From the NCBI GenBank assembly GCA_030446685.1, contig JAUJMV010000011.1, forward strand, positions 29,324 to 93,323: a DNA stretch of 64,000 nucleotides, in the 5' to 3' direction. The stretch's first letter is position 1. Every line of letters begins with the position of its first letter. Position numbers and translations under genes: made by a program. Below are positions 10,198-53,811 of this stretch, one piece after another. Under the pieces are notes generated by a model that searched no databases, was not told the DNA's origin, and was given only the letters and a program-made list of their open reading frames with translations. Origin of the DNA: Thermomicrobiales bacterium (GTDB lineage Bacteria; Chloroflexota; Chloroflexia; Thermomicrobiales; CADCWN01).

Positions 10198-11573
10198 TTC
10201 GTCGTTCGTCGTTCGTCGTTCGTACTTCGTCAGAGGGGCAGGCCGGAAGCGCCCGCCCCGGCCGCCCATGCCGGGGAAGCCGCCCTTGCCGATCATCGCC
10301 ATCATCTTCTGCATCTGCTTGAACTGGTTGAGCAGCGCGTTGACCTCGTGGATCTCCCGACCGCTCCCCTGGCGATCCGCCGCCGCCGGCTCCCCTTGAC
10401 CAGTTGCGGGTTGCGGCGCTCCTCCGGCGTCATCGAGCGGATGATCGCCTCGATCTGCTTCAGGTCGTCGTCGCTCACCTGCACGTCCTGCTTGCGCGCC
10501 TGCGCGCCGAGGCCGGGGATCATCTCCAGGAGTTGGCCGATCGGCCCCATCTGCTTGACCTGCTGGAGCTGATTGAGGAAGTCCTCCAGGTCGAACTTGC
10601 CGGAGAGGACTTTCTGCTCCATCGCCTTGGCCTGCTGCTCGTCGAACTGGCTCTGCGCCTTCTCGATCAGGCTCAGCACGTCGCCCATCCCCAGGATGCG
10701 CGAGGCCAGGCGGTCGGGGTGGAACGCCTCGATCGCGTCGACCTTCTCCCCGGTCCCCAGGAACTTGATCGGCACGCCGGTGACGCGGCGGATCGACAGC
10801 GCCGCGCCGCCGCGCGCGTCGCCGTCCATCTTGGTCATGATCACGCCGGTCAGCCCGACCCGCGCGTGGAACTCGCGCGCCACGTTGACCGCCTCCTGAC
10901 CGGTCATCGCGTCGGCGACCAGGAGGATCTCGGTCGGCGCGGCGACCCGCTTGATCTCCTCCAGCTCCTCCATCAACTGCTCGTTGATCTGCAGCCGCCC
11001 GGCGGTGTCGACGATCACCGTGCCGTTGCCCTTGTCGCGCGCCACGCGCAGCGCGTTCTGGACGATCCGCGGCGGCGGGGTCTGCGTGCCCTCCTCGTAG
11101 ACCGTCAGATCGACCTGCTTGCCGAGCGCCTGCAACTGGGTGATCGCGGCGGGGCGATAGACGTCGGCGGCGACCAGCAGCGGCTGCTGCCCGCCCTTGC
11201 GCAGGTTGACGCCCAGCTTGGCCGCGTGGGTCGTCTTGCCGGACCCCTGCAACCCCACCAGCATGATCACCGTCGGCGGGGCGGACGCGCGCCCCAGCGG
11301 GACCTGCTCGTCGCCGAGGAGGTGGATCAGCTCCTCGTGGACGATCTTGATCACCTGCTGGCCGGGGCTGAGGCTCCTGAGCACCTCCTGGCCCAGCGAG
11401 CGCGCCTTGACCGCCGCGACGAACTCCTTGACCACCGCCAGGTTGACGTCGGCCTCGATCAGCGCGCGGCGCACCTCGCGCATCGCGTCATCAATATCTT
11501 TCTCGGTCAGCCGCCCGCGGTTGCCCATCTTCTGGAACAACCCCTGCAGGCGGTCGCTCAAACTCTCGAACAC
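10195..11573 (-). CDS. ffh: Signal recognition particle protein Ffh (frameshift near C-terminus, about 10367-10395)
   Basis: VFESLSDRLQGLFQKMGNRGRLTEKDIDDAMREVRRALIEADVNLAVVK; GLQGSGKTTHAAKLG; VDTAGRLQINEQLMEEL; tail MMAMIGKGGFPGMGGRGG in shifted frame. Confidence 0.95.
10199..10230. repeat. Microrepeat locus A: GTTCGTC heptads overlapping ffh stop (single arm)
   Basis: ttcgtcgttcgtcgttcgtcgttcgtac. Confidence 0.85.
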
Positions 11574-11589
11574 GCTCACCCCTCCGTGT

Positions 11590-11700
11590 GCGTGAGTGCT
11601 GAGTGCTGAGTGCTGAGTGCTGAGAACCCGTGGGCTAGGGGGCACCCGTCGCCTACCAGCACCACCTACTCATCACCCATCACCCATCACTCCATCACTC
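11590..11700. repeat. Microrepeat locus B between ftsY stop and ffh start (two arms, different words)
   Basis: gtgagtgctgagtgctgagtgctgagtgctgag and catcacccatcacccatcactccatcactcg. Confidence 0.85.
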
Positions 11701-12665
11701 GATTTCGCCTTCGTGCTCCTCGAAGAAGAGGCCGTCGACGAAGGTCTCGGCGTTGAACTCGGTCAGATCGTCGAGGGTCTCGCCGGTGCCGACGTAGGAG
11801 ATCGGCACGCCGAGCGCCTTGGTCACCGCGAAGGCGATGCCGCCCTTCGAGGTGCCGTCGAGCTTGGTCAGCGCGATGTCGGTGATCTCGACCGACTTGG
11901 CGAACTCCTCCGCCTGCCGCAGCCCGTTCTGCCCGGTGTTGGCGTCGATGATCAGCAGCACCTCCTGCGGCGCCTCCGGCACGGTCTTCTGCATCACCCG
12001 GCGGATCTTGGTCAACTCCTGCATCAGGTTGTACTTGGTGTGCAGGCGGCCGGCGGTGTCGACGATCAGCAGATCGGCCCCGCGGTTGTGCGCCGCCTGC
12101 ATCGCGTCGAAGACGACCGCGCCGGGGTCCGCCCCCGGTTGGTGGGCGATCGTCGGGACGCCGATCCGCCCGCCCCAGACCTGGAGCTGGTCGATCGCCG
12201 CCGCCCGGAAGGTGTCGCCCGCCGCCAGGATCACCGAGCGGTTGAACCGCTGCTGGTGGTAGCGCGCCAGCTTGGCGATCGTCGTCGTCTTGCCGACGCC
12301 GTTGACCCCCACGACCATGATCACGAACGGCACGCCGCGCTGGAAGATCTTCACCCGCCGGTAGCGCGTCGCCTTCTTGAGCAGATCGATCATCTCCTGG
12401 CGCAGGATCTCCTGCGCGTCGGCGGGCGGCGCAGCCCCTGCTCGCGGATCTTGGCGCGCAGCTCGTCCATCAGTAGGTCGGTGGTGTCCGCCCCGATGTC
12501 CGCGCCGATCAGCACCGCCTCCAGATCGTCGTAGAAATCCTCGTCGATCTCGCTGCGCTGGAAGATCTCGATCACCTGGCGGAAGACGCCGCGCCGCGTC
12601 TTCTGCAGGCTCTGCTCCAGCTTCTGGTCGCGCTGCCCGCGCCGGAAGAATCTACTCAGCACCAC
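11695..12665 (-). CDS. ftsY: Signal recognition particle receptor FtsY (frameshift about 12390-12430)
   Basis: MVLSRFFRRGQRDQKLEQSLQKTRRGVF...ADIGADTTDLLMDELR + GVNGVGKTTTIAKLARYHQ...AAGDTFRAAAIDQL...VDTAGRLHTKYNLMQEL. Confidence 0.93.
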
Positions 12666-12799
12666 CGCCGTCTCTCCACCCCGTCATACGTCCGCACCGG
12701 GCACCACCGCCAGCCGATTGCCCGGTGATCACTCTCCAAACCAGAGCCTCTGTGCCGGGTCAAGTGTAGCATAGCGCCAGGGCCGGAAAGCGGCGGCGT

Positions 12800-13250
12800 T
12801 CACTGGCAAGGTCTCCCGAGATAGACCGGGCTGCCCTCGTCCGCCGCGCCGCCGAGCAGCGACCGCAACCCCAGCGGGTAGAGCCGCGTCCGCGGCACCG
12901 GCCGCGCCAGGGGCAGCCGCGCCGGGCCGCTGCCCCTCGTCCGGGCGGTCGCCGGCACCGCGCTGCCCCTCGTCCGGGCCAGGGTCGCGGCGGAACATGA
13001 ACTCGACCCGGTAGCGAACACCCCCGCGGGAACTCGCGGACCAGGCTCATGGATCGAGCGCGGCGGCAACTCCTCGCGCCGCTTCCCGCCGCACCGCCTC
13101 CGCCGGGGTCTCGCCCGGCTCCTGGCCGTGACGCGCCCCGGCCGGAGTCGGGGGCGAAGAAGACGCCGTCCTCGAACCGCATCGTCAGCGCCAGGAAGCG
13201 ACTGTCGCGGATGATCAGCGCCCTGGCCGCGTTCCGCATCGTCCCCACGG
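12800..13250 (-). pseudogene. Nudix hydrolase-like ORF with multiple frameshifts
   Basis: MRNAARALIIRDSRFLALTMRFEDGVFFAPD, EELPPRSIHEPG, TRLYPLGLRSLLGGAADEGSPVYLGD in different frames. Confidence 0.5.
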
Positions 13251-13369
13251 CAACACCTTCCCGAAGGATCCCTTCGACCAAGCGCCAGTCTCTCCGAAGA
13301 TGCAAAGCCCCCGCCCTCTCCCAGCATTGGGAGAGGGCGGACCGGGGTTGGGGAGTGGGTGAGGGCCGC

Positions 13370-14456
13370 TCACCCCAGCGAGAACCGCTGATAGCCGTTC
13401 TCGCAGGGCGGCCCGTCGCTCACCTGGAGGGTCCGGTCGTGCAGATCCATCACCACCGAGGCCACTGTCGCGTACCGCTCCTCGGGCCGCTCCGCCGGGA
13501 TCGGGGTGGTGGCAGATCGAGTAGGGCCAGCCCTCGTGGTCGCGCAGGAAGCCTTGCAGCGCCCCGACCGTCAGCGGGCCGGCGCCGGCCAGGAGGGCTT
13601 GCAACCGCTCCAATCGGCCGATAGGAATGGGGATTGTCCTCGATCGGCGGCTCGACCACCCCCAGCGCGTCCGGATCGAGGAAGTGGTTGGTGTGGACCA
13701 GCCACCCGCCCTCCGGCCGCAGCCGGCAGGCGCCGTCCGGTGCGGCCTCGATGTCGATCGCGCGGTCGGGGGCCTGGGCGATCAGGAAGTTGGCGGAGTA
13801 GGCCCGCCCCGCCCCGGCCAGGCCAGCGGTCGCCGCGTCGAGGTCGCGCGACCGCAGGATCTCGTAGCAGCGGACGTGGAACGGCGTCCCCAGCCGCGAC
13901 CAGTCGTCGGCCGTCGTCGTCAGCCCGTTGATCGCCAGCCCCAGCCCCGCCGCGTTGAGGCCGATCTTGCCGCCGAAAATGCCCGCCTCGGTGAAGCTGA
14001 GCGTCGCCAGGCCGTCCGGCTCGACCGTCCGCACCACCGCGCCCCGCACGTCGGGGATCAATCCCAGTTCTCCCCGAGCAGCAGGTGCCCGTCCGCCGAG
14101 GCCGCGGGCAGGACCGCGAACGCCGTGCAGCCGTCAACCCCGCCCGTCGCGAGCACGCCGAACTGGTAGTACAGGATCTCGTAGCGCACGTTGAGCGCGA
14201 CGATCTCGCCGAGATCGAAGCCGCCCCCGTCGGCGATCCCGCGCATCCCGGCGAAGTAGGCCGGGTTGCCCGCCTCGATCGCCCGCGCGTAGCGCGCCGC
14301 CCGCGCCAGCACCTCCGCGCGCGGCAGCCCGGCCTCCTCGGCGAAGCGCCGGAAGTAGACCGCCAGGTTGTGCGCGATCGGCCCCCGGAGCGCCGCGCCG
14401 TGCCGCCGCCCCTGGTCGTACGGCCCGCCGTCGAGCTGGAGGAGGGGCAGCGTCAT
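13370..14456 (-). CDS. C45 family peptidase / acyl-CoA:6-APA acyltransferase-like (frameshifted)
   Basis: GGPYDQGRRHGAALRGPI; NVRYEILYYQFGV...DGCTAFAVLP..GENWD; GGKIGLNAAGLGLAINGL; WLVHTNHFLDPDAL; C-term DRTLQVSDGPPCENGYQRFSLG. Confidence 0.75.
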
Positions 14457-14470
14457 GCCTCGTTACTCCC

Positions 14471-14587
14471 GGTCGAAGGTCGAAGGTCGAAGGTCGAACG
14501 TCTCTCGCGTCAACGGCTTCGCGCGTTCCTGGAACATCGCAGCCTCTCACCGCGAGACCTTCGACCTTCGACCTTCAGACCTTCGAC
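14471..14587. repeat. Microrepeat locus C: inverted GTCGAAG heptads with about 45-nt loop
   Basis: ggtcgaaggtcgaaggtcgaaggtcgaacgtctctcgcg ... cgcgagaccttcgaccttcgaccttcagaccttcgac. Confidence 0.95.
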
Positions 14588-15593
14588 CCGTCCTCGCCCT
14601 CGCCCTCGCGCAGCGTCTTCACGTAGTTGATCCAGGCCGGTTGCTTGACGAAGCCCAACTGCTCGTTGATCGCCAGCATCGGCCGGTTGTTGGTCTCGTT
14701 CCAGGTCTTGATCAGCGTCCGCCCCTGCGCCCGCGCCCAGGCCAGGCCGTGCAGCTTCAACGCCAGCGCGATCCCCCGCCGCCGGTAGGCGCGCTTGACG
14801 CCGGTGAGGCCGTTGTAGAGGTCGTCGTTCCCTGGCTAGCCCAGAGGTTGTGCATCGCGACGTACTCGCCGGTCGCGGTGTCGATCGCGACAAAATAGCC
14901 GTCGGGCAGCAGGTTCGGATCGTTGAGCACCCGCTCGACGAACCACTCGAAGCTGACCGGCGTGCGCGGCTCCGGGTGCGGCACATCCTCCGACAGCTCC
15001 TCGTCCAGCTCGTAGAGCTTGCGGTCGCGCTCCGGGTCGGCCGCCAGCTCGCGGAAGGTCTTGAAGGCGATCCCGCCGGCCAGGACCCGCTCCTCGACCC
15101 CGGCGTAGGGGGTCGGGTCGAACGCCGCCAGATCCAGGCGCGACTCCCAGGAGCGCATGTCCTCCGCGAACCCACGGTCCCGCAGGAAGCGGACACCGCG
15201 CGCCCAGTCCTCCCGCGTGTTGCCCCGCACCGCCAGCGGCTCGAACGGCGCCAGCGCGTCGAGCACCCGCCCGTAGAGGGCCGCGCCGATCCCCCGGCCC
15301 TGCCACTCCGGGTGGACGAAGATGTCGATCCAGAACTTGCGCGGGTGGAACATCCCGGCCGACTGGCCGTACTCGCCGACCGCCACGACGCGGCCCTCCC
15401 GCTCGGCGACCCAGCGCGCGTGCTTGGTCTTCTTCGGGTCGCGGTGCTCGTCGTTGTACCGCGCCTCCTCGACCGTGCCCGGATACTCGTCGTAGACCGC
15501 GTTCGCGACCGCGACCTGCGCGGGATAATCGTCGGGGGTGAACGGGCGAATCGTCGCTCCCATCTGCCGCTCCACTTCGGTCGGCACGTCCAT
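14575..15593 (-). CDS. GNAT-family N-acetyltransferase, two domains (frameshift about 14800-14840)
   Basis: WIDIFVHPEWQGRGIGAALYGRVLDAL; LKLHGLAWARAQGRTLIKTWNETNNRPMLAINEQLGFVKQPAWI. Confidence 0.8.
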
Positions 15594-15730
15594 CGTCACA
15601 TTTCTCCGGACATTCCCCGTCGCCGCAACCATCCCGAATTATCCTTTCCCCGGCGGCGCCCGCCGGACAACCCGACACAAAACATCCCGGCCAGCCCTCG
15701 GCGCGCGGACTCCACGACCGCTGCCCTCGA

Positions 15731-16243
15731 CTATACGTCGCGCCCCGCCCGCCCACCCATCGCCCGGCGGGACAGAAACGCGCTGGCCGGATGGACAGGA
15801 GGAGACAAATCGGCCTGTTGCCCGCCGACACACGTCAGGACGAAGGATTCTGTCCGGCCTTGTAGATGTTCAGCCCCGATTCGCTGGAAATGAGCGACGT
15901 TCCGCGTTGCAAGCGTCAAACCATAATGCAGCGCCGTGGCGGCAATCAGCAGATCGAGATCGGCGAGGCGCTGCCCTTTGCTTCGCAGTTCGCGACGGAT
16001 CTGGGCAAAACGCTTCACGATTGGCTGATCCAGTGGCAAGACTGCCACCTCCTCCAGAAACAACAGGAAACCCGCCTCACTGGCCCGTGGATCGGTACTG
16101 CCATACACCCCGTCGTAAATCTCGCCGACCGTGATCAGGCTGATCGCGGCACCCTCATACGCCAGGGCGCGCAAGAGCAGCGTAGCATCCGGCAGACCTT
16201 TGAGGAAGTCGATCACCCAATCGGTGTCGATCAGATACTTCAT
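15731..16243 (-). CDS. PIN-domain (VapC-like) ribonuclease toxin
   Basis: MKYLIDTDWVIDFLKG...ISLITVGEIYDGV...LADLDLLIAATALHYGLTLATRNVAHFQRI. Confidence 0.85.
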   Translation of the reverse strand: MKYLIDTDWVIDFLKGLPDATLLLRALAYEGAAISLITVGEIYDGVYGSTDPRASEAGFLLFLEEVAVLPLDQPIVKRFAQIRRELRSKGQRLADLDLLIAATALHYGLTLATRNVAHFQRIGAEHLQGRTESFVLTCVGGQQADLSPPVHPASAFLSRRAMGGRAGRDV

Positions 16244-17373: not shown

Positions 17374-17499
17374 GGGACAAGCTCCGATCCGTGCCGACAG
17401 TACGAACCTGCTCGTATTAGCATATTGCTCCGGCGTGCCCAATGCTACCCCCGTCGCCCCCGCGTGCCCCAGACGCACGCACGGCGCGGAGACCAGGCG

Positions 17500-18838: not shown

Positions 18839-21220
18839 CTACGCCGCCCCGCGCTTCCCCCCACCCGCCACGCGCACCGGGCGCACGCGCGGCGACGCCG
18901 CCCCGCGCTTCCCCCCACCCGCCACGCGCACCGGGCGCACGCGCGGCGCGGGGGCCAGTTCGGCGCGCAGCCGCTCGGCGAGGGAGGTGTAGCGCTCGGC
19001 GACGCGGTCGCTCTTCAGCGCGATCATCAGCGCGCGCCAAGAGCCGACGATGACGACCAGCTCCTTCGCGCGCGTGACCGCGGTGTAGAGGAGGTTGCGC
19101 TGCAACATCAGGTAGTGCGTGGTGTGCAGCGGGATGATCGCGCAGCGGTACTCGCTCCCCTGGCTCTTGTGGACCGTCACCGCGTAGGCGATCACCAACT
19201 CGTCGAGGTCGCTGAACGACCAGGTCACCCGCCGGTCGTCGTCGAGGCGCACCACCACCTCCTGCTCGACCGGATCGAGCGCGACGATCCAGCCGCCATC
19301 GCCGTTGAAGACCTGGCGGTCGTAGTCGTTCTGCACGCAGATCACCCGGTCGCCCTCGCGGTAGAGGCGCGACCCGAACTGCTTCTCCCCCTTGCGCGGC
19401 CCCGGCGGGTTGAGCGCCGCTTGTAAACGCTCGTTCAGCGCCGAGACGCCGATCGCGCCGCCGTGCATCGGGCAGAGGACCTGGATGTCCCTCAGAGGAT
19501 CGAAGCCGTAGCGCCGCGGCAGCCGGTCGCGCGCCAGCCCGACGATCTGCTCGGCGACCTGCTCCGGGTCGTCCTCGGCGATGAAGAAGAAGTCGGGCAG
19601 CCCCTTCATGATCGGCGTCTCGCCCTTGTTGATGCGGTGCGCGTTGGTGACAATGCCGCTGTCCTGCGCCTGCCGGAAGATCACGTCGAGCTGCGTCACC
19701 GGCGCCTGCCCCGAGGCGATCAGGTCGCGCAGCACGTTCCCCGCCCCCACCGACGGCAACTGGTCGACATCCCCCACGAAGAGGACGTGCATGTCGTTCG
19801 GCGCCGCCTTGAGGAGCGTGTTGGCGAGGAGCGTGTCGAGCATCGACGCCTCGTCCACGATCAGCAGGTCGCCGTCGAGCGGGTTGTCGGCGTTGCGGCC
19901 CGCCTCGCCGCCGAACCGTACGCCGAGCAGGCGGTGCAGCGTCTGCGCCGGCACGCCGGTCAGGTCGGTCAGGCGCTTGGCGGCCCGCCCGGTCGGCGCG
20001 GCCAGGAGCGGCCGCCCCCGCTTCGCCTGGAGGATCGCGACGATCGCCTGCGTGGTCGCGGTCTTCCCGACCCCCGGCCCGCCGGTGAGGATGCTGACCT
20101 TGCTGGTGAGCGCCATCCGCACCGCCGCGCGCTGCCCCTCGGTCAGCGCGTAGCCGCGCTGCCCGGCGTACCAGGCGAACGCCCTGGCCCAGTCCACCTC
20201 CCGGAAGTGGGCCAGCCGGTCGGCCGGCGAGCGCAGGATCGCCCCGACCCGGCGGACGATGTTCCCCTCGGCGTAGTAGTAGGCGGTCAGGTAGATCACC
20301 GGCCGGTCGTCGACCGTCTCGCGGCGGGCGCTGTCGGTCGTCAGCAGCCGCTCGATCGCCTCGCGCACCCGCCCCTCGGCGACCGCCAGCATCTCGACGC
20401 TGCGCCGGACCAGGTCGTCCTCCGGCAGGAAGACGTGGCCGTCGTCCGCCGCCTCCCACAGGAGGTGCAGCGCCGCGCCCATCACCCGCTCCGGCGCGTC
20501 GGGCGGGATGCCGAGCTGCAGGGCGATCTTGTCGGCGGTCTTGAAGCCGATGCCGTGGACCTCGCGCGCCAGGCGGTAGGGGTCGTTCTTGACGATGCCG
20601 ATCGCCGCGTCGCCGTAGCGCTTGTAGATGCGCACCGCCAGCGCGGTGGAGACCCCCTGGTCGGCCAGGAAGACCATCACCTCCTTGATCGCGCGCTGCT
20701 CGCGCCAGGCGTCGCGGATCAGCCCACAGCGGCGCGGCCCCAGCCCCGGCACCCCCGCCAGCCGCTCCGGCGCCCCCTCGATGACCTCCAGCGTCTCCTC
20801 GCCGAACCGCTCGACGATCCGCTCGGCCATCTTCGGCCCGATCCCCTTGATCATCCCCGAGCCGAGGTACTTGCGGATGCCGTCCACGGTCGCCGGCAGC
20901 ACCACCCGGCAGCGCTCGGCGACGAACTGCCGCCCGTGCTGGGCGTGCGTCTCCCAGCGCCCGCCCAGCTCGACGCTCTCGCCGACGTTGACCGCGGGCA
21001 GGCTCCCGACCACCGCCACGAGGTAGCGCTTGCCCGCCGGCTGCACCTTCGCCACGGTGTAGCCGTTCTCCGGGTTGACGTAGGTCAGCCGCTCGATCAC
21101 GCCCTCCAGCCGGGCGGGCGGATCGCCGCCCCCCTGCTCGCGCGCCGCCCCCGCTGCCACCTTCCGCCCCTTCCAAGCCGCCACCTGGCTAGATTCCTTG
21201 CCATGCCGGTAGTATAGCAA
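18839..21220 (-). CDS. recD2: RecD2-type SF1 DNA helicase (exact start uncertain)
   Basis: GVIERLTYVNPENGYTVAKVQ; ILTGGPGVGKTATTQAIV; APTGRAAKRLTDLTG; TLHRLLGV; LIVDEASMLDTLL; YAVTVHKSQGSEYRCAIIPL; NLLYTAVTRAKELVVIVG. Confidence 0.92.
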   Translation of the reverse strand: MLYYRHGKESSQVAAWKGRKVAAGAAREQGGGDPPARLEGVIERLTYVNPENGYTVAKVQPAGKRYLVAVVGSLPAVNVGESVELGGRWETHAQHGRQFVAERCRVVLPATVDGIRKYLGSGMIKGIGPKMAERIVERFGEETLEVIEGAPERLAGVPGLGPRRCGLIRDAWREQRAIKEVMVFLADQGVSTALAVRIYKRYGDAAIGIVKNDPYRLAREVHGIGFKTADKIALQLGIPPDAPERVMGAALHLLWEAADDGHVFLPEDDLVRRSVEMLAVAEGRVREAIERLLTTDSARRETVDDRPVIYLTAYYYAEGNIVRRVGAILRSPADRLAHFREVDWARAFAWYAGQRGYALTEGQRAAVRMALTSKVSILTGGPGVGKTATTQAIVAILQAKRGRPLLAAPTGRAAKRLTDLTGVPAQTLHRLLGVRFGGEAGRNADNPLDGDLLIVDEASMLDTLLANTLLKAAPNDMHVLFVGDVDQLPSVGAGNVLRDLIASGQAPVTQLDVIFRQAQDSGIVTNAHRINKGETPIMKGLPDFFFIAEDDPEQVAEQIVGLARDRLPRRYGFDPLRDIQVLCPMHGGAIGVSALNERLQAALNPPGPRKGEKQFGSRLYREGDRVICVQNDYDRQVFNGDGGWIVALDPVEQEVVVRLDDDRRVTWSFSDLDELVIAYAVTVHKSQGSEYRCAIIPLHTTHYLMLQRNLLYTAVTRAKELVVIVGSWRALMIALKSDRVAERYTSLAERLRAELAPAPRVRPVRVAGGGKRGAASPRVRPVRVAGGGKRGAA
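18841..18948. repeat. Perfect 54-bp tandem repeat x2 encoding the RecD2 C-terminal tail
   Basis: acgccgccccgcgcttccccccacccgccacgcgcaccgggcgcacgcgcggcg twice in tandem (RVRPVRVAGGGKRGAASP). Confidence 0.9.
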
Positions 21221-23948: not shown

Positions 23949-24064
23949 GTCGGGAGTCGGGAGTAGAGAGTCGGGAGTAGAAGGCGGATCGTTGTTGCTG
24001 GCCGCGCGTGGACTCTGTCCCGTGGGCCACTCCCGACTCTCTACTCCCGACTCCCGACTCCTTA
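23949..24064. repeat. Microrepeat locus D: inverted GTCGGGA/GTAGAGA heptads
   Basis: gtcgggagtcgggagtagagagtcgggagtagaagg ... cactcccgactctctactcccgactcccgactcctta. Confidence 0.95.
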
Positions 24065-26545: not shown

Positions 26546-26670
26546 GGGTCGCACGTCGCACGTCCGAACGTCGAACGTCCCTCACTCGCAAGCCAGCGCC
26601 CGGTAGAACGCCCCGTCGACAACCACGAGGTGTGACGACGGAGGACCTTCGACCTTCGACCTTCGACCCG
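26546..26670. repeat. Microrepeat locus E: GTCGAAG-type inverted arms between T-box terminator and leuS RBS
   Basis: gggtcgcacgtcgcacgtccgaacgtcgaacgtcc ... ggaccttcgaccttcgaccttcgacccg (arms partly diverged). Confidence 0.8.
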
Positions 26671-27203: not shown

Positions 27204-27225
27204 CGAATCCGCAATCCGCAATCGT
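27204..27225. repeat. Microrepeat locus M: ATCCGCA heptads directly after corA stop (single arm)
   Basis: cgaatccgcaatccgcaatcg. Confidence 0.75.
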
Positions 27226-28211: not shown

Positions 28212-28350
28212 CGAACGCGGAACGTCGAACGCGGAACGCGGAAAAGGACGGTCGCGCGACGGTCCGTTCACCCGGCAGCGATCGCCCCCCATTGCCCGGT
28301 GTTTCGCATACACCGTTGTTCCGCGTTCGACGTTCCGCATTCCGCGTTGG
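28212..28350. repeat. Microrepeat locus F: inverted GCGGAAC heptads
   Basis: cgaacgcggaacgtcgaacgcggaacgcggaaaagg ... gttgttccgcgttcgacgttccgcattccgcgttgg. Confidence 0.93.
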
Positions 28351-28956: not shown

Positions 28957-29044
28957 TGTAGGGGCGGGTTTCAAACCCGCCCTGGTCGGCATGCCTCGAA
29001 CCTGGGGGCGAGGCAACCGGGCGGGATCGAAACCCGCCCCTACC
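28957..29044. repeat. Palindromic GTAGGGGCGGGTTTC element with perfect 15-bp terminal inverted repeats
   Basis: gtaggggcgggtttcaaacccgccc ... gggcgggatcgaaacccgcccctac. Confidence 0.88.
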
Positions 29045-30361: not shown

Positions 30362-30475
30362 TCCTTGTCATCCTGAGCCGCGGCGAAGGATCGCGCTCCC
30401 TGGCGCCCGCATAGCGGATGGTCTCGTGCGGTGCCTTGTCAACCGATCCTTCGCTCCGCTCAGGATGACAAGGCG
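30362..30475. repeat. Palindromic REP-like element (TCATCCTGAGC family), copy 2
   Basis: ccttgtcatcctgagccgcggcgaaggatcg ... cgatccttcgctccgctcaggatgacaagg. Confidence 0.85.
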
Positions 30476-31400: not shown

Positions 31401-31519
31401 CGAACGCGGAACGGGGAACGGGGAACGCGGAACAGGGAACGGACGTCGGGGCCGGGTAGTGCGCTACCAAGCCTCTTCATCCCTTGTTCCGCGTTCCGCA
31501 TTCCCCGTTCCCCGTTCGC
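31401..31519. repeat. Microrepeat locus G: inverted GCGGAAC/GGGGAAC heptads
   Basis: cgaacgcggaacggggaacggggaacgcggaacagggaacgg ... cccttgttccgcgttccgcattccccgttccccgttcg. Confidence 0.95.
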
Positions 31520-32992: not shown

Positions 32993-33083
32993 GAGTCGGG
33001 TAGTCGAGTAGAGGACGCGAGGATCGCGACCGGCCGCGTGCCTCGCTCCAAGCCCCTACCCGACTACCCGACTACCCGACTCC
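32993..33083. repeat. Microrepeat locus H: inverted AGTCGGGT octads between divergent genes
   Basis: gagtcgggtagtcgagtagagg ... cccctacccgactacccgactacccgactcc. Confidence 0.88.
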
Positions 33084-33719: not shown

Positions 33720-34457
33720 TCAGCGAGATCCGCGCGGCGAGCAATGTAGTAGCACATCGCCCAGCGCCCCCAGCCAGAGGTCGGGTGCCAGGGCGGCCAG
33801 ATCCTCGACAGCGCCGCCGCCCCATGGGGCGGCGGCGCTGCGCATCCCGGCGGCGCGGGCGGCGCGGAGGTCGTGCGTGCTGTCGCCGACATAGAGACAG
33901 CCCGCCGGGGCGACGCCGAGAGTGGCCGCGGCCTTCAGCAGCGGATCGGGCTCCGGCTTGTGGCGCGCGGTATCCTCGGCGCAGATCGTCACATCCACCA
34001 GCGGTTCGAGCGCGCAGAGCCGGAAGGCGAGTTCGGCCTGGGGGCGGCTCTTCGCGGTGACGATTCCCAGCCGGTAGCCCCGCGCGCGCAGCTCCCGCAG
34101 CGTCTCGGCCGCCCCCGGGAAGGGGCGCACCAGCGCGTCGTGGTGCGCGCGCACGTAGGCGCGGTAGGTCGCCAGCAACGCCGCGCCGCGCCCCGGCGCC
34201 AGTTCCTCCAGCACCACCGCGAGCGGCCGCCCGATCGTCGCGACAATCGCTGCGCGCGACGGCGCCGCGCCCAGGTGCGTGCGCGTCGCGCGCTCGAACG
34301 CGCGGACGATCAGCTCCACCGAATCGATCAGCGTGCCGTCGAGGTCGAAGAGGACGGCTTCGCAGGACTGAGGACCGAGGACCGAGGACTGCGTGGGAGA
34401 CGCGCGCAACCCGCAGCCTTCGGGGTTGGCATCCGCCCCTCGACGCGCCCTATTCAC
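33720..34457 (-). CDS. HAD-family hydrolase (phosphoglycolate phosphatase/PpaX-like); N-terminus reads through a microrepeat
   Basis: EAVLFDLDGTLIDSVELIVRAFE; LGIVTAKSRPQAELAF; KPEPDPLLKAAATLGVAPAGCLYVGDSTHDLRAARAAGM. Confidence 0.88.
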   Translation of the reverse strand: MNRARRGADANPEGCGLRASPTQSSVLGPQSCEAVLFDLDGTLIDSVELIVRAFERATRTHLGAAPSRAAIVATIGRPLAVVLEELAPGRGAALLATYRAYVRAHHDALVRPFPGAAETLRELRARGYRLGIVTAKSRPQAELAFRLCALEPLVDVTICAEDTARHKPEPDPLLKAAATLGVAPAGCLYVGDSTHDLRAARAAGMRSAAAPWGGGAVEDLAALAPDLWLGALGDVLLHCSPRGSR

Positions 34458-34477
34458 TCAGCACTCAGCACTCGTCC

Positions 34478-41090: not shown

Positions 41091-41124
41091 CTACTCCGCA
41101 CTCCCCATTCCGCACTCCGCACGC
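41091..41124. repeat. Microrepeat locus N: TCCGCAC heptads after acyl-CoA dehydrogenase stop (single arm)
   Basis: ctactccgcactccccattccgcactccgcac. Confidence 0.75.
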
Positions 41125-41126
41125 TG

Positions 41127-42314
41127 TCAAGCGAACGCCTGCACCCCCGTGATCTCGCGCCCGACGATCAGCGCCTGGATCGTGTCGGTCCCCTCGTAGG
41201 TGTAGACCGCCTCCATGTCCGCCTGGTGCCGCGCGACGTGGTACTCCAGCAGGATGCCGTTGCCGCCGAGGATGTCGCGCGCGTCGGCGACGACCTGGCG
41301 GGCCTTGAGGGCGTTGTTCATCTTCGCCAGCGAGGCCATGCCGGGCGTCATCTGCCCCGCCTCCAGGAGCTGGCTCAGCCGCAGGCAGAGGAGCTGCATC
41401 GAGGTGATCTCCGCCAGCATCCGCGCCAGCTTGTTCTGGATCAACTGGAAGCTGACCAGCGGCTTGCCGAACTGCTGCCGCTCCTTCGCGTAGGCCAGCG
41501 CGTACTCGTAGCAGGCGAGCGCGTGGCCGATCGCCTCCCAGGCCACGCCGTAGCGCGTCGCGGTCAGCACCTTGGCGGTGTCCTTGAAGCTGTTGGCCCC
41601 GGCGAGGCGGTTGCCGGCGGGGATGCGCGCCCCTTCGAGGGTGATCTCGGTCTGCCAGACGGCGCGCTTGGCGGTCTTGCCGGTGATGATGTCGGTGCGG
41701 AAGCCGGGCGTCCCCTTCTCGACCACGAAGCCGCCGACCTGGCCCGCCTCGTCGCGCGCCCAGACGATCGTCACGTCGGCGAAGGAGGCGTTGCCGATCC
41801 ACTTCTTCGCGCCGTCGAGGACCCACTCGTCCCCGTCGCGGCGGGCGCGCGTCTCCAGCGCCACCGCGTCGGAGCCGTGGTTCGGCTCGGTCAGCCCGAA
41901 CGCGCCGATGAGGTCCATGCGCGCCATCGGCGGCAGCCACCGCGCCTTCTGCTCCTCCGACCCGAGCATCGCGATCGAGCCCATCGCCAGCCCGGAGTGG
42001 ACCCCGAAGAAGGTGTTCAGGCTGCCGTCGCCGCGCGCCAGCTCGACCGCCACCAGCCCGCCCGCCACCGCGCTCAGGCCGGGGCAGCCGTAGCCGCGGA
42101 TCGTCGTCCCGGCGATGCCGAGCGCGGCGAACTTGGGGATCATTGCAAAGGGGAACTCGGCGCGCTCCCAGTAGTCGTTGATCTGCGGGATGATCTCCCG
42201 GTCGCAGAAGGCGCGGACCTTGTCGCGGACCGCGCGCTCCTCCGGGGTCAGCAGCGCGTCCATCAGGTAGTAGTCGGTCCCCGGCGTCGTGGCGGGCTGC
42301 GCGTCGACGGCCAT
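41127..42314 (-). CDS. Acyl-CoA dehydrogenase (glutaryl-CoA dehydrogenase-like)
   Basis: FGVHSGLAMGSIAMLGSEEQKARWLPPMARMDLIGAFGLTEPNHGSDAVAL; DILGGNGILLEYHVARHQADMEAVYTYEGTDTIQALIVGREITGVQAF. Confidence 0.92.
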   Translation of the reverse strand: MAVDAQPATTPGTDYYLMDALLTPEERAVRDKVRAFCDREIIPQINDYWERAEFPFAMIPKFAALGIAGTTIRGYGCPGLSAVAGGLVAVELARGDGSLNTFFGVHSGLAMGSIAMLGSEEQKARWLPPMARMDLIGAFGLTEPNHGSDAVALETRARRDGDEWVLDGAKKWIGNASFADVTIVWARDEAGQVGGFVVEKGTPGFRTDIITGKTAKRAVWQTEITLEGARIPAGNRLAGANSFKDTAKVLTATRYGVAWEAIGHALACYEYALAYAKERQQFGKPLVSFQLIQNKLARMLAEITSMQLLCLRLSQLLEAGQMTPGMASLAKMNNALKARQVVADARDILGGNGILLEYHVARHQADMEAVYTYEGTDTIQALIVGREITGVQAFA

Positions 42315-42426: not shown

Positions 42427-42491
42427 GCCGGTCCCGCCCATTCTAGCACCGCACGGCCGCCCCGCGCCCTGGTAGAATGGGCGGGACCGGC
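42427..42491. promoter_or_regulatory. Inverted repeat with two outward-facing TAGAAT -10-like boxes between divergent genes
   Basis: gccggtcccgcccattctagcacc ... ggtagaatgggcgggaccggc (19-bp identical arms). Confidence 0.7.
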
Positions 42492-44519: not shown

Positions 44520-44635
44520 GAGTCGGGTAGTCGGGCAGTCGGATAGTCGGATTGAGGACGTGGACGAGCCGCGCAACCGACAGCCCACTCTTCGTCCACT
44601 ACCCGACTACCCGGCTACCCGACTACCCGACTCAT
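44520..44635. repeat. Microrepeat locus J: inverted AGTCGGGT octads between acs stop and thiolase start
   Basis: gagtcgggtagtcgggcagtcggatagtcgg ... ccactacccgactacccggctacccgactacccgactc. Confidence 0.95.
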
Positions 44636-44648
44636 GCGGGAGGCAGTG

Positions 44649-46604: not shown

Positions 46605-46765
46605 AGCGATACCTCCTTACTGTGACAACCATAGCATCCCTGGTTGCCTTGCGCAACCAAACGCCTGCGCGGACAGAAACTGTTACCCGATGATACACTC
46701 CCCGTGAACGCGGAATGCCTTCTGCAATGGCGCCTACTCACAACCGTCGGGAAGATCGAGCGCTC

Positions 46766-48229: not shown

Positions 48230-48434
48230 CGGCCGGTCCGCACGGAGCCTCGCGCGCCCCGCCCCCCGCTCGCTACAGCATTCACCCTGCCTGGTTGGGC
48301 GGCGCGTCTCGCGCCATCGTTGTCCCCTGCCGGGCCGCGTCGCGCCATACCGCCTTTCACGCCAGCAACACCCCACGGCGGGGCGGCCGGGGCAACGTGC
48401 CCTGGCCGCCTCCTCAATGGCGGGCGCCCGGCGG

Positions 48435-49034
48435 TCAGCCCCGCGCGATCTTCCCCCCGCGCCAGACGACGTAGCCGAGCAGGAACCAGCCGATCGCGGT
48501 GGAAATGCTCCCGAGATCGCCAGCGCGTTCGCCGAAGGCTGACGCCGCGATGGTGATCGGCATCCAGAGGGGGCAGAGGATCGGGACGAAGCGCATCCAG
48601 CCCTGCAGGACGCGCGCGCGCAGGACGGCGATCCCGACGAGGATCAGGACCAGCATGCTCAGCGGCCAGGCGGCGTCGGTGATCGTGAAGAGGAGGCTAT
48701 CGCTACCCGGCGCGACGAACTCGTAGACCTGGAAGAAGGAAGCGAGCACCACGCCGACCAGCTCGAGCCCCAGGACGATCTTGCCGGGCAGCCGATCGCC
48801 CGCGGCGCGCAGGGTCCACAGGCCGAGCACGCTGCTGAACCAGCCGAGCGTGAACAGCAGGCCCAGGGCGGCGCCGAGCCGGTTGCTGTCGCCCTGCTGG
48901 AAGCTGTTGGCGGCGAACGAGGAAGAGGAACGGGCTGCCGATCATCCCCAGCACGCCCAGGATTCGATGGGCCGATGCAGCCCCTCGCGCGGGTGTCGCG
49001 GCGGGCTCTGCCGTCAACTGCGACCGAACGACCA
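48435..49034 (-). CDS. Hypothetical multi-TM protein (frameshifted near N-terminus)
   Basis: MVVRSQLTAEP..HRILGVLGMIGSPFLFL + LGLWTLRAAGDRLPGKIVLGLELVGVVLASFFQVYEF...WPLSMLVLILVGIAVLRARVLQGW. Confidence 0.5.
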
Positions 49035-49355
49035 TGGCGAAACTCCTTCTTGTTGAGGGACGTGGCGAGTTGCGGTTGCCATTACGACGCGAGCGATCGT
49101 GATCCGCGGAGCACTCCCGATAGCGCACCTCCTCGTTGTCGCCCGGCCCCCGTGGTCCGGGCACCCTTCAGTCCTGGTCCCATTTCGCGCCCCAGCGCCG
49201 ACGCCCGCGGCGTCTTGCGCCACCCGCCCGGCCCGGCCCATCCGGGCCGGCGGCGACTGGTCAGAGCGTACCGCGCGCGCTTCCCCCGCCGCGTCACCAG
49301 CGGCAGTGATTTTTCGGTGCGCTTTGCGTATGGTTGTCGGAAAGGAGGATGCTCG

Positions 49356-50495
49356 ATGCCCAGACTCTCACGCGCGCAGGATGAGGCCCGCCGGCGGGTC
49401 AACGACCTGGCCGCGGGCAACCTGCCGCCCGCGGCGTTGGGGGGCCGGCTGCTGGCGGCCTTGCGCCGGGCGATCCCCTCCGACGGGTGCCGGCTGCTCG
49501 GGATCGACCCCGCCACGCTCCTGGTCAACCGCACCCTGGCCGCCAGCGCCGGCGACGACTGGGCGCGGCGCGCCTGGCTGCGCGATGCCTACCTGGCCTC
49601 CGGGCCGCTGACCTACATCGACTTCCCGACCTGATGCGCGCGGGGCTCACGGCGGTCGCCCTCCACGACCGGCAGGAGGCGTGCTGGGGCTACCCGCCGC
49701 GGCACTTCGGGCGCGTCTCCGCGCGCGACCACCACCACGCCTTCCACGAGAACCAGGCCCCGGCCGGCGGCTCGCTGCTGGTCAGCATCCCGGCGGAGGG
49801 CCGCTGGGTCGCCGCGCTGCAGATCTACCGCCGCGACCCCAAGCAGCCATTCCGGCGCGGCGACGTCGCCTTCCTGCGCCTGATCGCCCCGGCGCTCGGG
49901 CAGGGCTGCGCGCGGCCCTCGCCCGCGAGCGCGCCGCCGTTGACGCCCCCGCCGCCGCCCCCGACGCTTCCGGCATCGTCGTCCTGGGTCCGGACCGGCG
50001 GGTGCGCTTCAGCACCCCCGCGGGCGAGGCGTGGTGCGCCCTGCTGCGGGACGCGGCGCGGGACGGGCACGGCCCGCTGCCCACGGCGGTCTGGGCGGTG
50101 GCGGCCCGGCTGCGCGCCGGGGCGGGCGTCGGCGCCCGCGCCCTGATCGCCCCGACCCCCGCCGGTCCCCTGCGGATCGAAGCCTCGCCGGGGGTGCCGA
50201 CGGCTCCGTGGCGATCGTGCTGACGCCGGAGCGCCCGCCCGCGCCGCCGGCGATCCCCGCGGAGTGGCCGCTGACCCCGGCGGAGCGCCAAGTCGTCGCG
50301 CTCCTCGCGCGCGGGCTGGGCAACCGGCAGATCGCCGACGCGCTGACGGTGAGCGAGAACACGGTCCAGACCCACCTGCGCCACGCCTACGAGAAGCTCG
50401 GCGTGGGGGGCCGCACCCAGCTCATGGCGCGCTTCTTCCGCGAGACCTACTGGCCCGCGATGGATGAAGCAGCCCCCGCAGCCCTCTGCGCGTAG
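49356..50495 (+). CDS. LuxR-family transcriptional regulator, at least three frameshifts
   Basis: C-terminal [58 protein letters not shown]; upstream pieces in other frames. Confidence 0.75.
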
Positions 50496-50661
50496 CGACC
50501 GAGCAACCACGATCACGAGGCGGCAAGGAGCAGCCAACGGGCCAGGCGCTCAGGAAGGGGCCGGCGACCGAAGTCGCGCTTGCCGCCTCACGAGCCACCA
50601 AGCCCAGCCACGCCGGGCTGAGGACCCCTGCAAGACCGCTGCTTATCGAGGTCGCCTCGGA

Positions 50662-50740
50662 CTTGCCCTCGGTTCCAGCCCGCGCAGGCGGGCTTCGTGG
50701 CCGCAGGCCCGCGAGACGCCGGTTTCAACCGGCGGCCCCT
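50662..50740. repeat. Palindromic element (TTCCAGCCCGCGCAGGCGGGCTTCGTGGCC family), copy 1
   Basis: cggttccagcccgcgcaggcgggcttcgtggccgcaggcccgcgagacgccggtttcaaccggcggcccc; cf. 53520-53590. Confidence 0.55.
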
Positions 50741-50806
50741 CGCCACCACTGGCAACATTCCATCCGGCCCATGCCCACATCCTCACGCCCCCAACCGGCG
50801 GCGCGA

Positions 50807-50860
50807 CTAGAAGTGTCACCCCGATTTCCCCCTTGATTGGCCCTCCCCAGGTGACACTAG
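50807..50860. promoter_or_regulatory. Inverted repeat AGTGTCACC/GGTGACACT upstream of pdxS, candidate operator
   Basis: ctagaagtgtcacc ... ggtgacactag. Confidence 0.4.
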
Positions 50861-50961
50861 CACCGCTATACTGGATGGTAGAATGGCGCACAGTCGGCTG
50901 TCGCCATCGCGCTGCCGCATGGGGCGGCGCGGGAACGGCCGGGGTTACAGGGGAGGGCAGG

Positions 50962-51891
50962 ATGCAGACGGTCAACGGCGCGAACGAAATCTACACGAAC
51001 GGCGACGGCGTCGAGAAATCCACCTGGGCGACCAAGACCGGCCTGGCCCAGATGCTCAAGGGCGGCGTGATCATGGACGTGGTGACGCCCGAGCAGGCGC
51101 GGCTCGCCGAGGACGCCGGGGCGGTGGCGGTGATGGCGCTGGAGCGCGTCCCGTCCGACATCCGCAAGGAGGGCGGCGTCGCCCGGATGAGCCCGCCCGA
51201 ACTGGTCGCGGCGATCAAGGAGGCGGTGACGATCCCCGTGATGGCGAAGGCGCGGATCGGCCACTTCGTCGAGGCGCAGGTGCTGGAGGCGCTCGACATC
51301 GACTACATTGACGAGAGCGAGGTCCTCACCCCCGCCGACGACCGCTTCCACATCGAGAAGCACGCCTTCAAGATCCCCTTCGTCTGCGGCGCGCGCGACC
51401 TCGGCGAGGCGCTGCGGCGGATCGGCGAGGGCGCGGCGATGATCCGCTCGAAGGGCGAGCCCGGCACCGGCAACATCGTCGAGGCGGTGCGCCACCTGCG
51501 CGAGATCACCGGCGGCATCCGCCGCCTCCAGACCGCCCCGCGCGAGGAGCTGATGACGATCGCCAAGGAGCTCGGTGCGCCCTACGAACTGGTGCGCCAG
51601 GTCGCCGCGGCGGGCAAGCTCCCGGTCGTCCTCTTCTGCGCCGGCGGCGTGGCGACCCCCGCCGACGCCGCCCTGGTGATGCAGCTCGGCGCGGAGGGCG
51701 TCTTCGTCGGCTCGGGCATCTTCAAGTCCGCCGACCCCGCCCGCACCGCCCGCGCGATCGTCCAGGCGACGACCAACTTCCGCGACGCCGCGCTGATCGC
51801 CGAGGTCAGCAAGGGCCTGGGCGAGCCGATGAAGGGCCTCGAGCTGGGCGCCATCCCGGCCGAGAGCCTGATGGCGCCGCGGGGCTGGTAG
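50962..51891 (+). CDS. pdxS: Pyridoxal 5'-phosphate synthase subunit PdxS
   Basis: [72 protein letters not shown]. Confidence 0.97.
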
Positions 51892-51909
51892 CGCGCCGGC
51901 GGGCGCGCG

Positions 51910-52027
51910 GGTCGAAGGTCGAAGGTCTGAAGGTCGAAAGTCTGTTGCTCTTGGGCTCCGCCGGTCAGGCAACGCCAGGCCCGGTCAGCGAGAGACCTTC
52001 GACCTTCGACCTTCAGACCTTCGACAC
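51910..52027. repeat. Microrepeat locus K: inverted GTCGAAG heptads between pdxS and pdxT
   Basis: gggtcgaaggtcgaaggtctgaaggtcgaaagtct ... agagaccttcgaccttcgaccttcagaccttcgacac. Confidence 0.95.
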
Positions 52028-52048
52028 AGCAAAGGAGCGTAACGAAGC

Positions 52049-52669
52049 ATGGCACCGACCATCGGCGTCCTCGCCCTCCAGGGGGCGTTCATCGAGCACG
52101 AGCGGGCGCTGGAGCGGCTCGGGGTGGCCTCGCGCGAGGTGCGCCAGCGCAAGCACCTCGACGGCATCGACGGGCTGATCATCCCCGGCGGCGAGAGCAC
52201 GACGATCGGCAAGCTGCTCGACGTGCTGGGGATGACCGAGCCGGTGCGCGCGCTGGGCCGGGCCGGGCTGCCGATCTGGGGGACCTGCGCCGGGCTGATC
52301 CTGCTGGCGACCGACGTGGGACGGCCGCAGACGACGCTGCGGCTGCTCGACATCGGGGTGGAGCGCAACGCCTTCGGCTCGCAGCTCGACTCCTTCGAGG
52401 CCAGGGTGCCGGTGCCGGCGCTCGGTGAGGAACCCTTCCCGGCCGTCTTCATCCGCGCGCCCCTGATCGCGCGGCTGGGCGCGGGCGTGACCCCGCTGGC
52501 GACGCTGACCGACGGCACGATCGTCGCCGCCGAGCGCGACGGGCTGCTGGCGACCGCGTTCCACCCCGAGTTGACCGACGACCCGCGCTTCCACCAGTAC
52601 TTCCTCGATAAAGTGGCGGCTCGCACGGCCTGGGACGCGGCGCCCGAGACGGTTGCCGCGACACGGTAG
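52049..52669 (+). CDS. pdxT: Pyridoxal 5'-phosphate synthase glutaminase subunit PdxT
   Basis: IGVLALQGAFIEHERALERLG; GLIIPGGESTTIGKLL; PIWGTCAGLILLA; ATAFHPELTDDPRFHQYFL. Confidence 0.95.
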   Translation: MAPTIGVLALQGAFIEHERALERLGVASREVRQRKHLDGIDGLIIPGGESTTIGKLLDVLGMTEPVRALGRAGLPIWGTCAGLILLATDVGRPQTTLRLLDIGVERNAFGSQLDSFEARVPVPALGEEPFPAVFIRAPLIARLGAGVTPLATLTDGTIVAAERDGLLATAFHPELTDDPRFHQYFLDKVAARTAWDAAPETVAATR

Positions 52670-52764
52670 CCGGCATCCGTCGTCGCGGGGGGTGAGCGAG
52701 GCGGAGAGGCCGCGCCAATAGCTACACCCTCGCAAACGGTGATGGGGGAGAAGGAGGGCGGCGG

Positions 52765-53337
52765 ATGACGCGACAGGACGATCTCCACACACTGCCCGCG
52801 GGACTCCCAGTGCCAGCCGACGACGGCGCCTGCGACCACCTGCCCGGCCTGCGCCTCCCGCCCCTGCCGCTCGCCTCGACCGCGGGTGGCCCGGTAGACC
52901 TGAGCGGCCTGCCCGGCACGACCGTCGTCTACTGCTACCCGCGCACCGGCGAGCCGGACAAGGACTCTCCCCCCGGCTGGGACGCGATACCGGGCGCCAG
53001 GGGCTGCACCCCGCAGTCGTGCGCCTACCGCGATCGCCACCGGGAACTCGGGGCGCTCGGCGCGCGGGTCTTCGGCCTCAGCACCCAGGACACCGCCTAC
53101 CAGCGGGAAGCGGCCGCACGGCTGCGCCTCCCCTTCCCACTGCTCAGCGACGCGGGGCTCGCCTTCGCCGGCGCGCTGCGCCTGCCAACCTTCCAGGTCG
53201 CCGGGCTGACCCTGATCAAGCGGCTGACGCTGATCCTGGAGGCGGGCCGGATCGAGACCGTCTTCTACCCCGTCTTCCCCCCGGACCAGGACGCCGCAGC
53301 GGTCCTCGCCTGGCTCACCGCGCGCCGCCGCGCCTGA
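52765..53337 (+). CDS. Peroxiredoxin / AhpC-TSA family protein
   Basis: TTVVYCYPRTGEPDKDSPPGWDAIPGARGCTPQSCAYRDRHRELGALGARVFGLSTQD...LPFPLLSDAGLAFAGAL. Confidence 0.85.
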   Translation: MTRQDDLHTLPAGLPVPADDGACDHLPGLRLPPLPLASTAGGPVDLSGLPGTTVVYCYPRTGEPDKDSPPGWDAIPGARGCTPQSCAYRDRHRELGALGARVFGLSTQDTAYQREAAARLRLPFPLLSDAGLAFAGALRLPTFQVAGLTLIKRLTLILEAGRIETVFYPVFPPDQDAAAVLAWLTARRRA

Positions 53338-53519
53338 CCCGCCCGCCCCGGTGTCAGACACCCCCCAGCCCAGGCAACGACCGCCTCCTCGGGCGGCTTC
53401 CGGCAGATCGCGGCCCTCGCACAGATAAACCGGCTCAAGTTCTCCGCCGGGTATGAATCGGGCCAAGCCGGACTGGAACCTGCCCGGGCATCGCGCCGAG
53501 CGAGAGCGCCCGGGGCTGG

Positions 53520-53590
53520 ACCCGGTCCCAGCCCCCGGAGGGGGCTTCGTGGCCCCTGGCCGGCAGGCGCGGCTTCGCCGGCGCCCCGCG
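53520..53590. repeat. Palindromic element (CCCAGCCCCCGGAGGGGGCTTCGTGGCC family), copy 2
   Basis: cggtcccagcccccggagggggcttcgtggcccctggccggcaggcgcggcttcgccggcgcccc; cf. 50662-50740. Confidence 0.55.
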
Positions 53591-53757
53591 CCCGTGTCAG
53601 AAAACCCCCATAAGCCCCCAACTCTAGGGCCGGGGAAGCGCCCCCGCGCGCCGCGCTTGAGCGCGCCGCCCCATCTGCTACTATGTACGTTCAGCCAGTG
53701 CCGCCCCGGCGGTCCGCTGCATGGCGCACGCCGCCGCGTACCAGGGAGCACGTCGGT

Positions 53758-53811
53758 GATTCCGCAATCCGCATTTATCCCCGTCAGGGGGATCCGCGAT
53801 CCGCAATCCCC
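53758..53811. repeat. Microrepeat locus L: ATCCGCA heptads abutting smc start, with small ATCCCC/GGGGAT hairpin
   Basis: gattccgcaatccgcatttatccccgtcagggggatccgcgatccgcaatcccc. Confidence 0.8.

What the first reader, a model, noticed from the sequence alone, without database searches (positions are those of the whole stretch)
10199..53811. Junction-capping heptad microrepeats: purine-rich arm at stop codons, matching pyrimidine-rich arm at the next start
At about 14 junctions (loci A-N in the features) short words, mostly 7 nt and sometimes 8 nt, repeat 2-4 times. At eight loci (C, D, E, F, G, H, J, K) the second arm is the reverse complement of the first, with a non-repetitive loop of roughly 35-70 nt. 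The word changes between loci (GTCGAAG; GTCGGGA; AGTCGGGT; GCGGAAC/GGGGAAC), yet within a locus both arms use the same word, a covariation-like pattern. Position and polarity follow a rule. The arm next to a stop codon is always purine-rich, often starting 0-3 nt after or overlapping the stop. The arm next to a start is always pyrimidine-rich and ends just before the RBS. Single-arm loci obey it too: A, M and N at convergent or terminal stops carry only the purine-rich arm, and L before smc carries only the pyrimidine-rich arm. Locus H, between two divergent starts, has pyrimidine-rich arms facing both genes. Heptanucleotide short tandem repeats (STRR) are described in cyanobacteria, but I do not know of a described element with this stop/start polarity. 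Whether it acts as an mRNA structure, an insulator or a selfish repeat is inference.
Basis: partly seen in the sequence, partly recalled or inferred. Interest (0 to 1): 0.92.

Follow-up and report, generated by a model that had tools for sequence, protein, structure and literature searches.

The report
Heptad-armed hairpins after stop codons
This Chloroflexota genome carries roughly 500 short DNA hairpins whose two arms are built from a repeated 7-8 letter word; they sit right behind stop codons, even inside core operons, and a sister genus keeps hairpins at many of the same places but spells them with other words, so the shape or the site, not the sequence, is what lasts.

Summary
Seven window loci are clean inverted repeats of 7/8-nt tandem arrays (loop 32-74 nt), three are mixed-word pairs, four are single arrays. 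In 1.25 Mb of the same genome I find 219 such arrays (6 in a Markov control) and about 87 inverted elements (~490 per genome by extrapolation) in dozens of words. The 5' arm is always the G/purine-rich one. Elements are anchored to stop codons (median 4 nt), fill tight tandem junctions, occur inside core operons such as atp and suf, and lack T-runs, so they are not intrinsic terminators. They behave as insertions: empty sites exist, and copies lie in frame inside purL (this genome) and leuS (sister genus). At 49 orthologous junctions the sister genus holds elements preferentially at the same places (13 both, 8 own only, 2 sister only, 26 neither; P=5e-5), with a different word every time; at sufB-sufD different words bracket one conserved core hairpin. 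The stop/start polarity is one property, not several, and was already published for Xanthomonas GGGAATC heptads (Rehm 2015). New here: the many-word repertoire, word replacement at conserved sites, in-frame copies and the host. Most likely mobile REP/MITE-like palindromes kept as intercistronic hairpins; the mover is unknown.

The parts
14471..14588 (.). Heptad-armed inverted repeat, word GTCGAAG, loop about 49-60 nt; sister genome has a 16-nt gap here (empty site)
23949..24061 (.). Heptad-armed inverted repeat, word GTCGGGA with mirrored variant GTAGAGA, directly behind leuS stop; sister genome has an element with another word (CGGAGACACGGAG)
28212..28348 (.). Heptad-armed inverted repeat, word GAACGCG, upstream of corA
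31401..31518 (.). Heptad-armed inverted repeat, word GGGGAAC/GCGGAAC, directly behind obgE stop
32993..33082 (.). Octad-armed inverted repeat, word AGTCGGGT, between divergent genes and more than 100 nt from both predicted starts
44520..44633 (.). Octad-armed inverted repeat, word AGTCGGGT, between acs-like and thiolase genes; sister genome has AGTCCGT heptad arms at the same junction
51910..52025 (.). Heptad-armed inverted repeat, word GTCGAAG with mirrored GTCTGAAG variant, between genes read by eye as pdxS and pdxT; sister genome has GTCGTCA arms here
11588..11698 (.). Mixed-word pair (GTGCTGA array and CATCACC array) between ftsY-like gene and ffh; sister genome has a GAGTGCC inverted repeat
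26548..26668 (.). Mixed-word pair (GTCGAAC and GACCTTC arrays) between tRNA-Ala and leuS
34364..34473 (.). Mixed-word pair (AGGACCG and CACTCAG arrays) in a tandem junction
10198..10231 (-). Single array CGACGAA (read on - strand), downstream of ffh stop
27206..27223 (-). Single array GCGGATT (read on - strand), directly behind corA stop
41093..41122 (-). Single array GCGGAGT (read on - strand), directly behind a gene ending at 41127
53791..53809 (+). Single array GATCCGC just upstream of smc; sister genome has an ATTCGTC-type array at the same place

Best explanation
These are non-autonomous palindromic repeat elements of about 107 nt (arm about 25, loop about 54), with arms built from 2-5 tandem copies of a 7/8-nt word. 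They spread as insertions (arm-loop-arm together) and are kept mainly where they do least harm or some good: in the first nucleotides after a stop codon, including between genes of polycistronic operons. As RNA they form long stable intercistronic hairpins that are read through by RNA polymerase and probably change message stability or uncouple neighbouring genes, in the manner of REP/BIME hairpins. Pairing and position last; the word and usually the loop are replaced over time from a lineage-specific vocabulary. Shown: abundance, architecture, polarity, stop anchoring, location inside operons, empty sites, in-frame intragenic copies, site overlap with the sister genus and word replacement. 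Inferred: mobility mechanism, effect on RNA, and whether overlap reflects selection or merely permissive sites.
For: 219 arrays against 6 in control and 38/38 polarity. Stop-to-arm median 4 nt (59/66 within 30), residual gap after removing the element 24 nt, 7/8 anchored at the stop where room exists, 0/78 with a T4 run. Elements lie at atpH-atpA, atpA-atpG, atpG-atpD and sufB-sufD, and at junctions I read from protein ends as nuo, secDF and pdxST (by eye). Empty sites: 118 against 16 nt and 102 against -2 nt; atpA-atpG is a tight gap in most other members of the order. In-frame copies: leuS of the sister genome, 38 aa replacing 1; purL, about 39 aa absent from Thermus PurL 3viu. Loop homology between dispersed copies of one word (82% over 57 nt, E 8e-11; 85-89% over 47-52 nt). 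Orthologous junctions 13/8/2/26, P=5e-5; P=0.01 when restricted to own gaps of at least 60 nt; words differ at all 13. RNA fold z -7 to -10 for clean loci.
Against: No mobilising enzyme was tied to them: three Y1 transposases exist, but none is flanked directly by elements. No target-site duplication was seen at leuS or atpA-atpG by eye. Same-site loops are no more alike than cross-site loops (P about 0.2), so shared sites might be separate insertions into permissive gaps. At sufB-sufD the arms bracket a conserved core, which a simple one-piece insertion does not explain. No expression data.
Confidence: 0.6

Rival explanations
1. In-situ concerted rewriting: hairpins stay at fixed junctions; arms expand and contract by slippage and one arm re-templates the other (template switching in the hairpin), so both arms change word together while the site, and sometimes the core, stays.
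For: sufB-sufD: a unique core hairpin (92% over 38 nt) is bracketed by ATTGCGG arms here and AATGACG arms in the sister genome. Mirrored variant units at loci 23949 and 51910 and in 4 of 14 tested elements. Mixed-word loci look like intermediates.
Against: The same words recur at many unrelated loci (AGTCGGGT 18 arrays, AGTGCTG 18, AAGGTCG 16) and some loops are homologous between loci, which needs dispersal; empty sites and in-frame insertions need insertion of whole units.
Confidence: 0.25
2. Neutral selfish DNA (a variant of the best explanation without function): insertions are random and only those in permissive gaps survive; the stop anchoring and overlap with the sister genus merely reflect which gaps tolerate DNA.
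For: Elements fill tight gaps and the residual gap is a normal operonic 24 nt; divergent-gap elements with clear gene calls lie more than 100 nt from starts, sparing promoters; in-frame copies in genes look like tolerated passengers.
Against: Strong site overlap; hairpins of other sequence occupy the sufB-sufD junction in several order members (9 of 17 folds below z -2).
Confidence: 0.35
3. Transcription terminators or promoter insulators.
For: Hairpins directly behind stop codons; also between convergent genes.
Against: No T-run in 78 of 78, loops about 54 nt; elements within core operons such as atp and suf.
Confidence: 0.07
4. G-quadruplex-forming simple repeats as proposed for Xanthomonas and Nostoc.
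For: G-rich strand polarity is shared; words GTCGGGA and AGTCGGGT carry G3 runs.
Against: Most common words here (GTCGAAG, AGTGCTG, ATTGCGG, AGTACGA) lack G3 tracts, so quadruplexes cannot be the common property.
Confidence: 0.03

Closest known systems
GGGAATC/GGGNATC heptameric repeats of Xanthomonas (and GGGGA(C/T)T of Nostoc), Rehm et al. 2015, PMC4692102
   Same: 7-nt tandem arrays; 70-75 inverted pairs per Xanthomonas genome; G-rich strand first; intergenic, mostly between aligned genes, about 28 nt from the 5' neighbour; site mostly conserved between species (83%).
   Different: One word per lineage there, about 30 recurrent words here; the shared sites there were found by looking for the same G-rich pattern, whereas here the word differs at all 13 shared sites; in-frame copies inside purL/leuS; most words here lack the G3 tracts of a G4; different phylum.
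REP / BIME / REPIN palindromes and RAYT (TnpA_REP)
   Same: Short dispersed palindromes behind stop codons and between operon genes, hundreds per genome.
   Different: REP are 20-40 nt without tandem heptads; no element directly flanks any of the three Y1 transposases.
Rickettsia palindromic elements (RPE)
   Same: About 100-150 nt palindromes that also insert in frame inside housekeeping genes (from general knowledge).
   Different: RPE families have conserved sequence without heptad arrays (general knowledge); here copies are mainly intergenic.
MITEs
   Same: Small non-autonomous inverted-repeat elements of about 100 nt.
   Different: No target-site duplication seen, no parent transposon known, ends are tandem arrays.
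STRR heptanucleotide repeats of cyanobacteria; TAACTGA repeats of Beggiatoaceae (PMC4679880)
   Same: Intergenic 7-nt tandem repeats, many loci.
   Different: Direct arrays, with one indirect repeat reported among 169 TAACTGA sets; single word.

Membership tests
Xanthomonas-type heptameric inverted repeats (Rehm 2015) | 7-nt tandem arrays in inverted pairs, G-rich strand first | tested here: met
   38 same-word inverted pairs, G>C in the 5' arm 38/38
Xanthomonas-type heptameric inverted repeats (Rehm 2015) | Intergenic, between aligned ORFs, close to the 5' neighbour's stop | tested here: met
   66/78 tandem, median 4 nt from stop
Xanthomonas-type heptameric inverted repeats (Rehm 2015) | Unit GGGNATC, G4-capable | tested here: not met
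   AGTCGGGT, AGTGCTG, AAGGTCG, ATTGCGG dominate
REP/RAYT | Palindromes flank a Y1 transposase gene | tested here: not met
   Three PF01797 genes; nearest array or element about 1.2 kb or more away
REP/RAYT | 20-40 nt palindrome with GTAG/CGTC tag | tested here: not met
   Element median 107 nt, arms are tandem arrays; no common tag among the words
MITE | Target-site duplication and conserved ends shared with a parent transposon | tested here: inconclusive
   No duplication visible at leuS or atpA-atpG against empty sites, but flanks are about 17-20% or more diverged; no parent sought beyond PF01797
RPE-like in-frame palindromic elements | In-frame insertion inside coding genes | tested here: met
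   leuS of sister genome, purL
RPE-like in-frame palindromic elements | Conserved RPE family sequence, Rickettsiales | not tested
   No RPE sequence was compared; the host is Chloroflexota
Intrinsic terminator | Short-loop GC hairpin followed by T-run | tested here: not met
   0/78 with T4, loop median 54

The most novel reading that the evidence does not exclude
A genome maintains hundreds of intercistronic hairpins at fixed junctions whose pairing and position are selected, while an active genome-wide process rewrites both arms together with a lineage-specific vocabulary of heptads (arm-to-arm and locus-to-locus copying), so that sister genera keep the same hairpins spelled with different words.
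Probability: 0.3. Interest if true: 0.82.

Novelty: new variant of a known kind. Interest (0 to 1): 0.6.

Why it matters
The long debate on REP-like palindromes is whether they are selfish or functional. Here the sequence turns over at sites where the hairpin architecture stays, which offers a natural experiment separating selection on shape and site from copying of sequence. It also shows short palindromes inside atp, suf and other core operons and in frame inside essential genes of Chloroflexota, and widens a phenomenon known for one word in Xanthomonas to a many-word system.

Tried and rejected
Rfam scan of the window: only a tRNA. Intrinsic terminators: rejected (no T-run). Y1/RAYT link: no flanking arrangement. 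'Universal stop codon cassette' idea: 5' arms have stops in 1.12 frames against 0.81 shuffled, all three frames in only 11 of 78; too weak. Same-site loop homology with the sister genome: not significant overall. Unit-order mirroring: only 4 of 14 variant-bearing elements above permutations. Strict detector gave P=0.022 for site overlap on 37 junctions; a gentler detector with no positives on shuffles, and more junctions, gave P=5e-5. First gene caller trained on antisense ORFs and was discarded (replaced). Same-word pattern searches outside the genome: AGTCGGGT 0 of 60 relatives, GTCGAAG pattern 0 of 120 other Chloroflexota (G001 was not in that set, and G001 does carry GTCGAAG elements).
Full report
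Host and data. The window is contig 16, 29324-93323, of a 7.04 Mb, 111-contig draft genome. Its leuS is 76% identical to that of the uncultured Thermomicrobiales genome AVDCRST_MAG18, which is the only held genome of the same family (G001: leuS sits at identical coordinates in L099 and in G001 contig 369). I read 1.25 Mb of the window's genome and several hundred kb of G001, with a home-made codon-usage gene caller (about 70% coding coverage), so some neighbours are missed and predicted starts are less certain than stops.

Observation. Tandem Repeats Finder and my own detector recover every locus named. Seven are clean inverted pairs, three are mixed-word pairs, four are single arrays. Genome-wide, 219 period-7/8 arrays stand against 6 in a Markov control; of 51 neighbouring array pairs 38 share a heptamer in inverted orientation, 1 in direct orientation, 12 share none, mostly related words. 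About 87 inverted elements in 1.25 Mb, after removing simple G/C runs, extrapolate to about 490 per genome. Median arm 25.5, loop 54, element 107 nt. About 30 words recur; AGTCGGGT, AGTGCTG, AAGGTCG and ATTGCGG lead.

Polarity and position. The 5' arm has G>C in 38 of 38. Since an inverted repeat looks the same from both strands, all the position-polarity rules in the finding reduce to this one bit plus the location. In tandem junctions the element starts a median of 4 nt after the stop and ends 19 nt before the next start; removing it leaves 24 nt. Among gaps under 400 nt with room to spare, 7 of 8 elements are at the stop. Five of seven elements in divergent gaps are more than 100 nt from both predicted starts; the other two lie in gaps over 1.6 kb where a gene was probably missed. 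There is no T-run in 78 of 78.

Operons. Elements lie between atpA and atpG and between atpG and atpD, and a degenerate one between atpH and atpA; G001 has elements at atpA-atpG and atpH-atpA. From protein ends I also read nuo, secD-secF, pgk-tpiA and pdxS-pdxT junctions (the atp, suf, nuo, sec and pdx names are by eye, not tested by profile search). Transcription must pass these junctions in such operons, which argues against terminators (established knowledge of these operons).

Insertion. The sister genome has an element inside leuS, 107 nt, in frame, with the window's leuS as the empty site. This genome has one inside purL where Thermus PurL has about 39 fewer residues; further intragenic candidates (glutamate synthase, two PMT genes, proS C-terminus) were not tested against homologs and one spans a sequence gap. 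Empty sites: window junction 14456-14583, 118 against 16 nt, and C25:250144, 102 against -2 nt. At atpA-atpG most other order members have a tight gap. Some loops of copies sharing a word are homologous between loci, so whole elements have been copied around.

Word turnover. The AGTCGGGT element pattern is absent from 60 relatives including G001, but G001 has the same architecture with mostly other words (AGTCCGT, AGTCGTG, AGTCGTC, AGTGCCG). At 49 orthologous tandem junctions, elements are in both genomes at 13, own only 8, G001 only 2, neither 26 (Fisher one-sided P=5e-5; P=0.01 with own gaps of at least 60 nt), and no shared site has the same word; the nearest pairs differ by one letter. Junctions entered through two queries conditioned on this genome's state and through contigs fetched earlier, so the table is case-control in design and the odds ratio, not the base rate, is meaningful. 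The detector had no positives on shuffled junctions but still misses degenerate copies (for example own C25:248676). At sufB-sufD a unique core hairpin, 92% identical over 38 nt, is bracketed by ATTGCGG arms here and AATGACG arms in G001; other order members have other hairpins there, some with heptad-like arms. Loops in general are not detectably conserved.

Mechanism. I favour mobile palindromic repeats retained as read-through intercistronic hairpins (0.6). Whether site overlap is selection or permissiveness is open, and the sufB-sufD case favours at least some in-situ arm replacement. The copying enzyme is unknown; three Y1 transposases are present but not flanked by elements. The rival confidences overlap with this one, because a purely selfish version shares its first half.

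Known relatives. Rehm et al. 2015 (PMC4692102) describe one-word heptads in Xanthomonas with inverted pairs and the same stop/start bias; that is the closest precedent and makes this a new variant of a known kind. Searches of the open library found no other description of this architecture.

Noticed in passing
window 50671-50742: A dispersed repeat (GGTTCCAGCCCGCGCAGGCGGGCTTCGTGGCCGCAGGCCCGCGAGACGCCGGTTTCAACCGGCGGCC): 30 BLAST matches in 1.25 Mb of this genome and many in the sister genus at 81-96% identity; a separate, sequence-conserved repeat family.
   Followed up: partly
window 18841-18948: Perfect 54-nt unit present twice in tandem.
   Followed up: no
window 30363-30473, 28958-29043, 42427-42491: Further long inverted repeats without heptad arms (TCATCCTGAGC type, GTAGGGGCGGG type, GGCGGGACCGGC type); TCATCCTGAGC occurs 30 times in 1.25 Mb.
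   Followed up: no
own C25:248676 (contig coordinates) and G001 locus L240: A CACAGAG/CACGGAG 8-9-nt palindrome family is at the same junction in both genera; in G001 a second array (AATGACG) sits inside its loop.
   Followed up: partly
L221 1279-1379 and L219 17382-17538 (G018, same order): Heptad arrays CGTCATG/GACGCAT in inverted order in another family of the order, where the 5' arm is not the purine-rich one.
   Followed up: no
L317, L314, L309 (atpA-atpG junction of other families): Other long hairpins of unrelated sequence at the atpA-atpG junction, one with purine-rich 5' arm CTGAGGGGGGAAGAGGA.
   Followed up: partly
L167 8325-8417 (FCPU426 bacterium): A heptad-like inverted repeat (AGTTCACAGTCGACGGTCGACAGTTCACAG) in a distant phylum, hinting that the class is widespread.
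   Followed up: no
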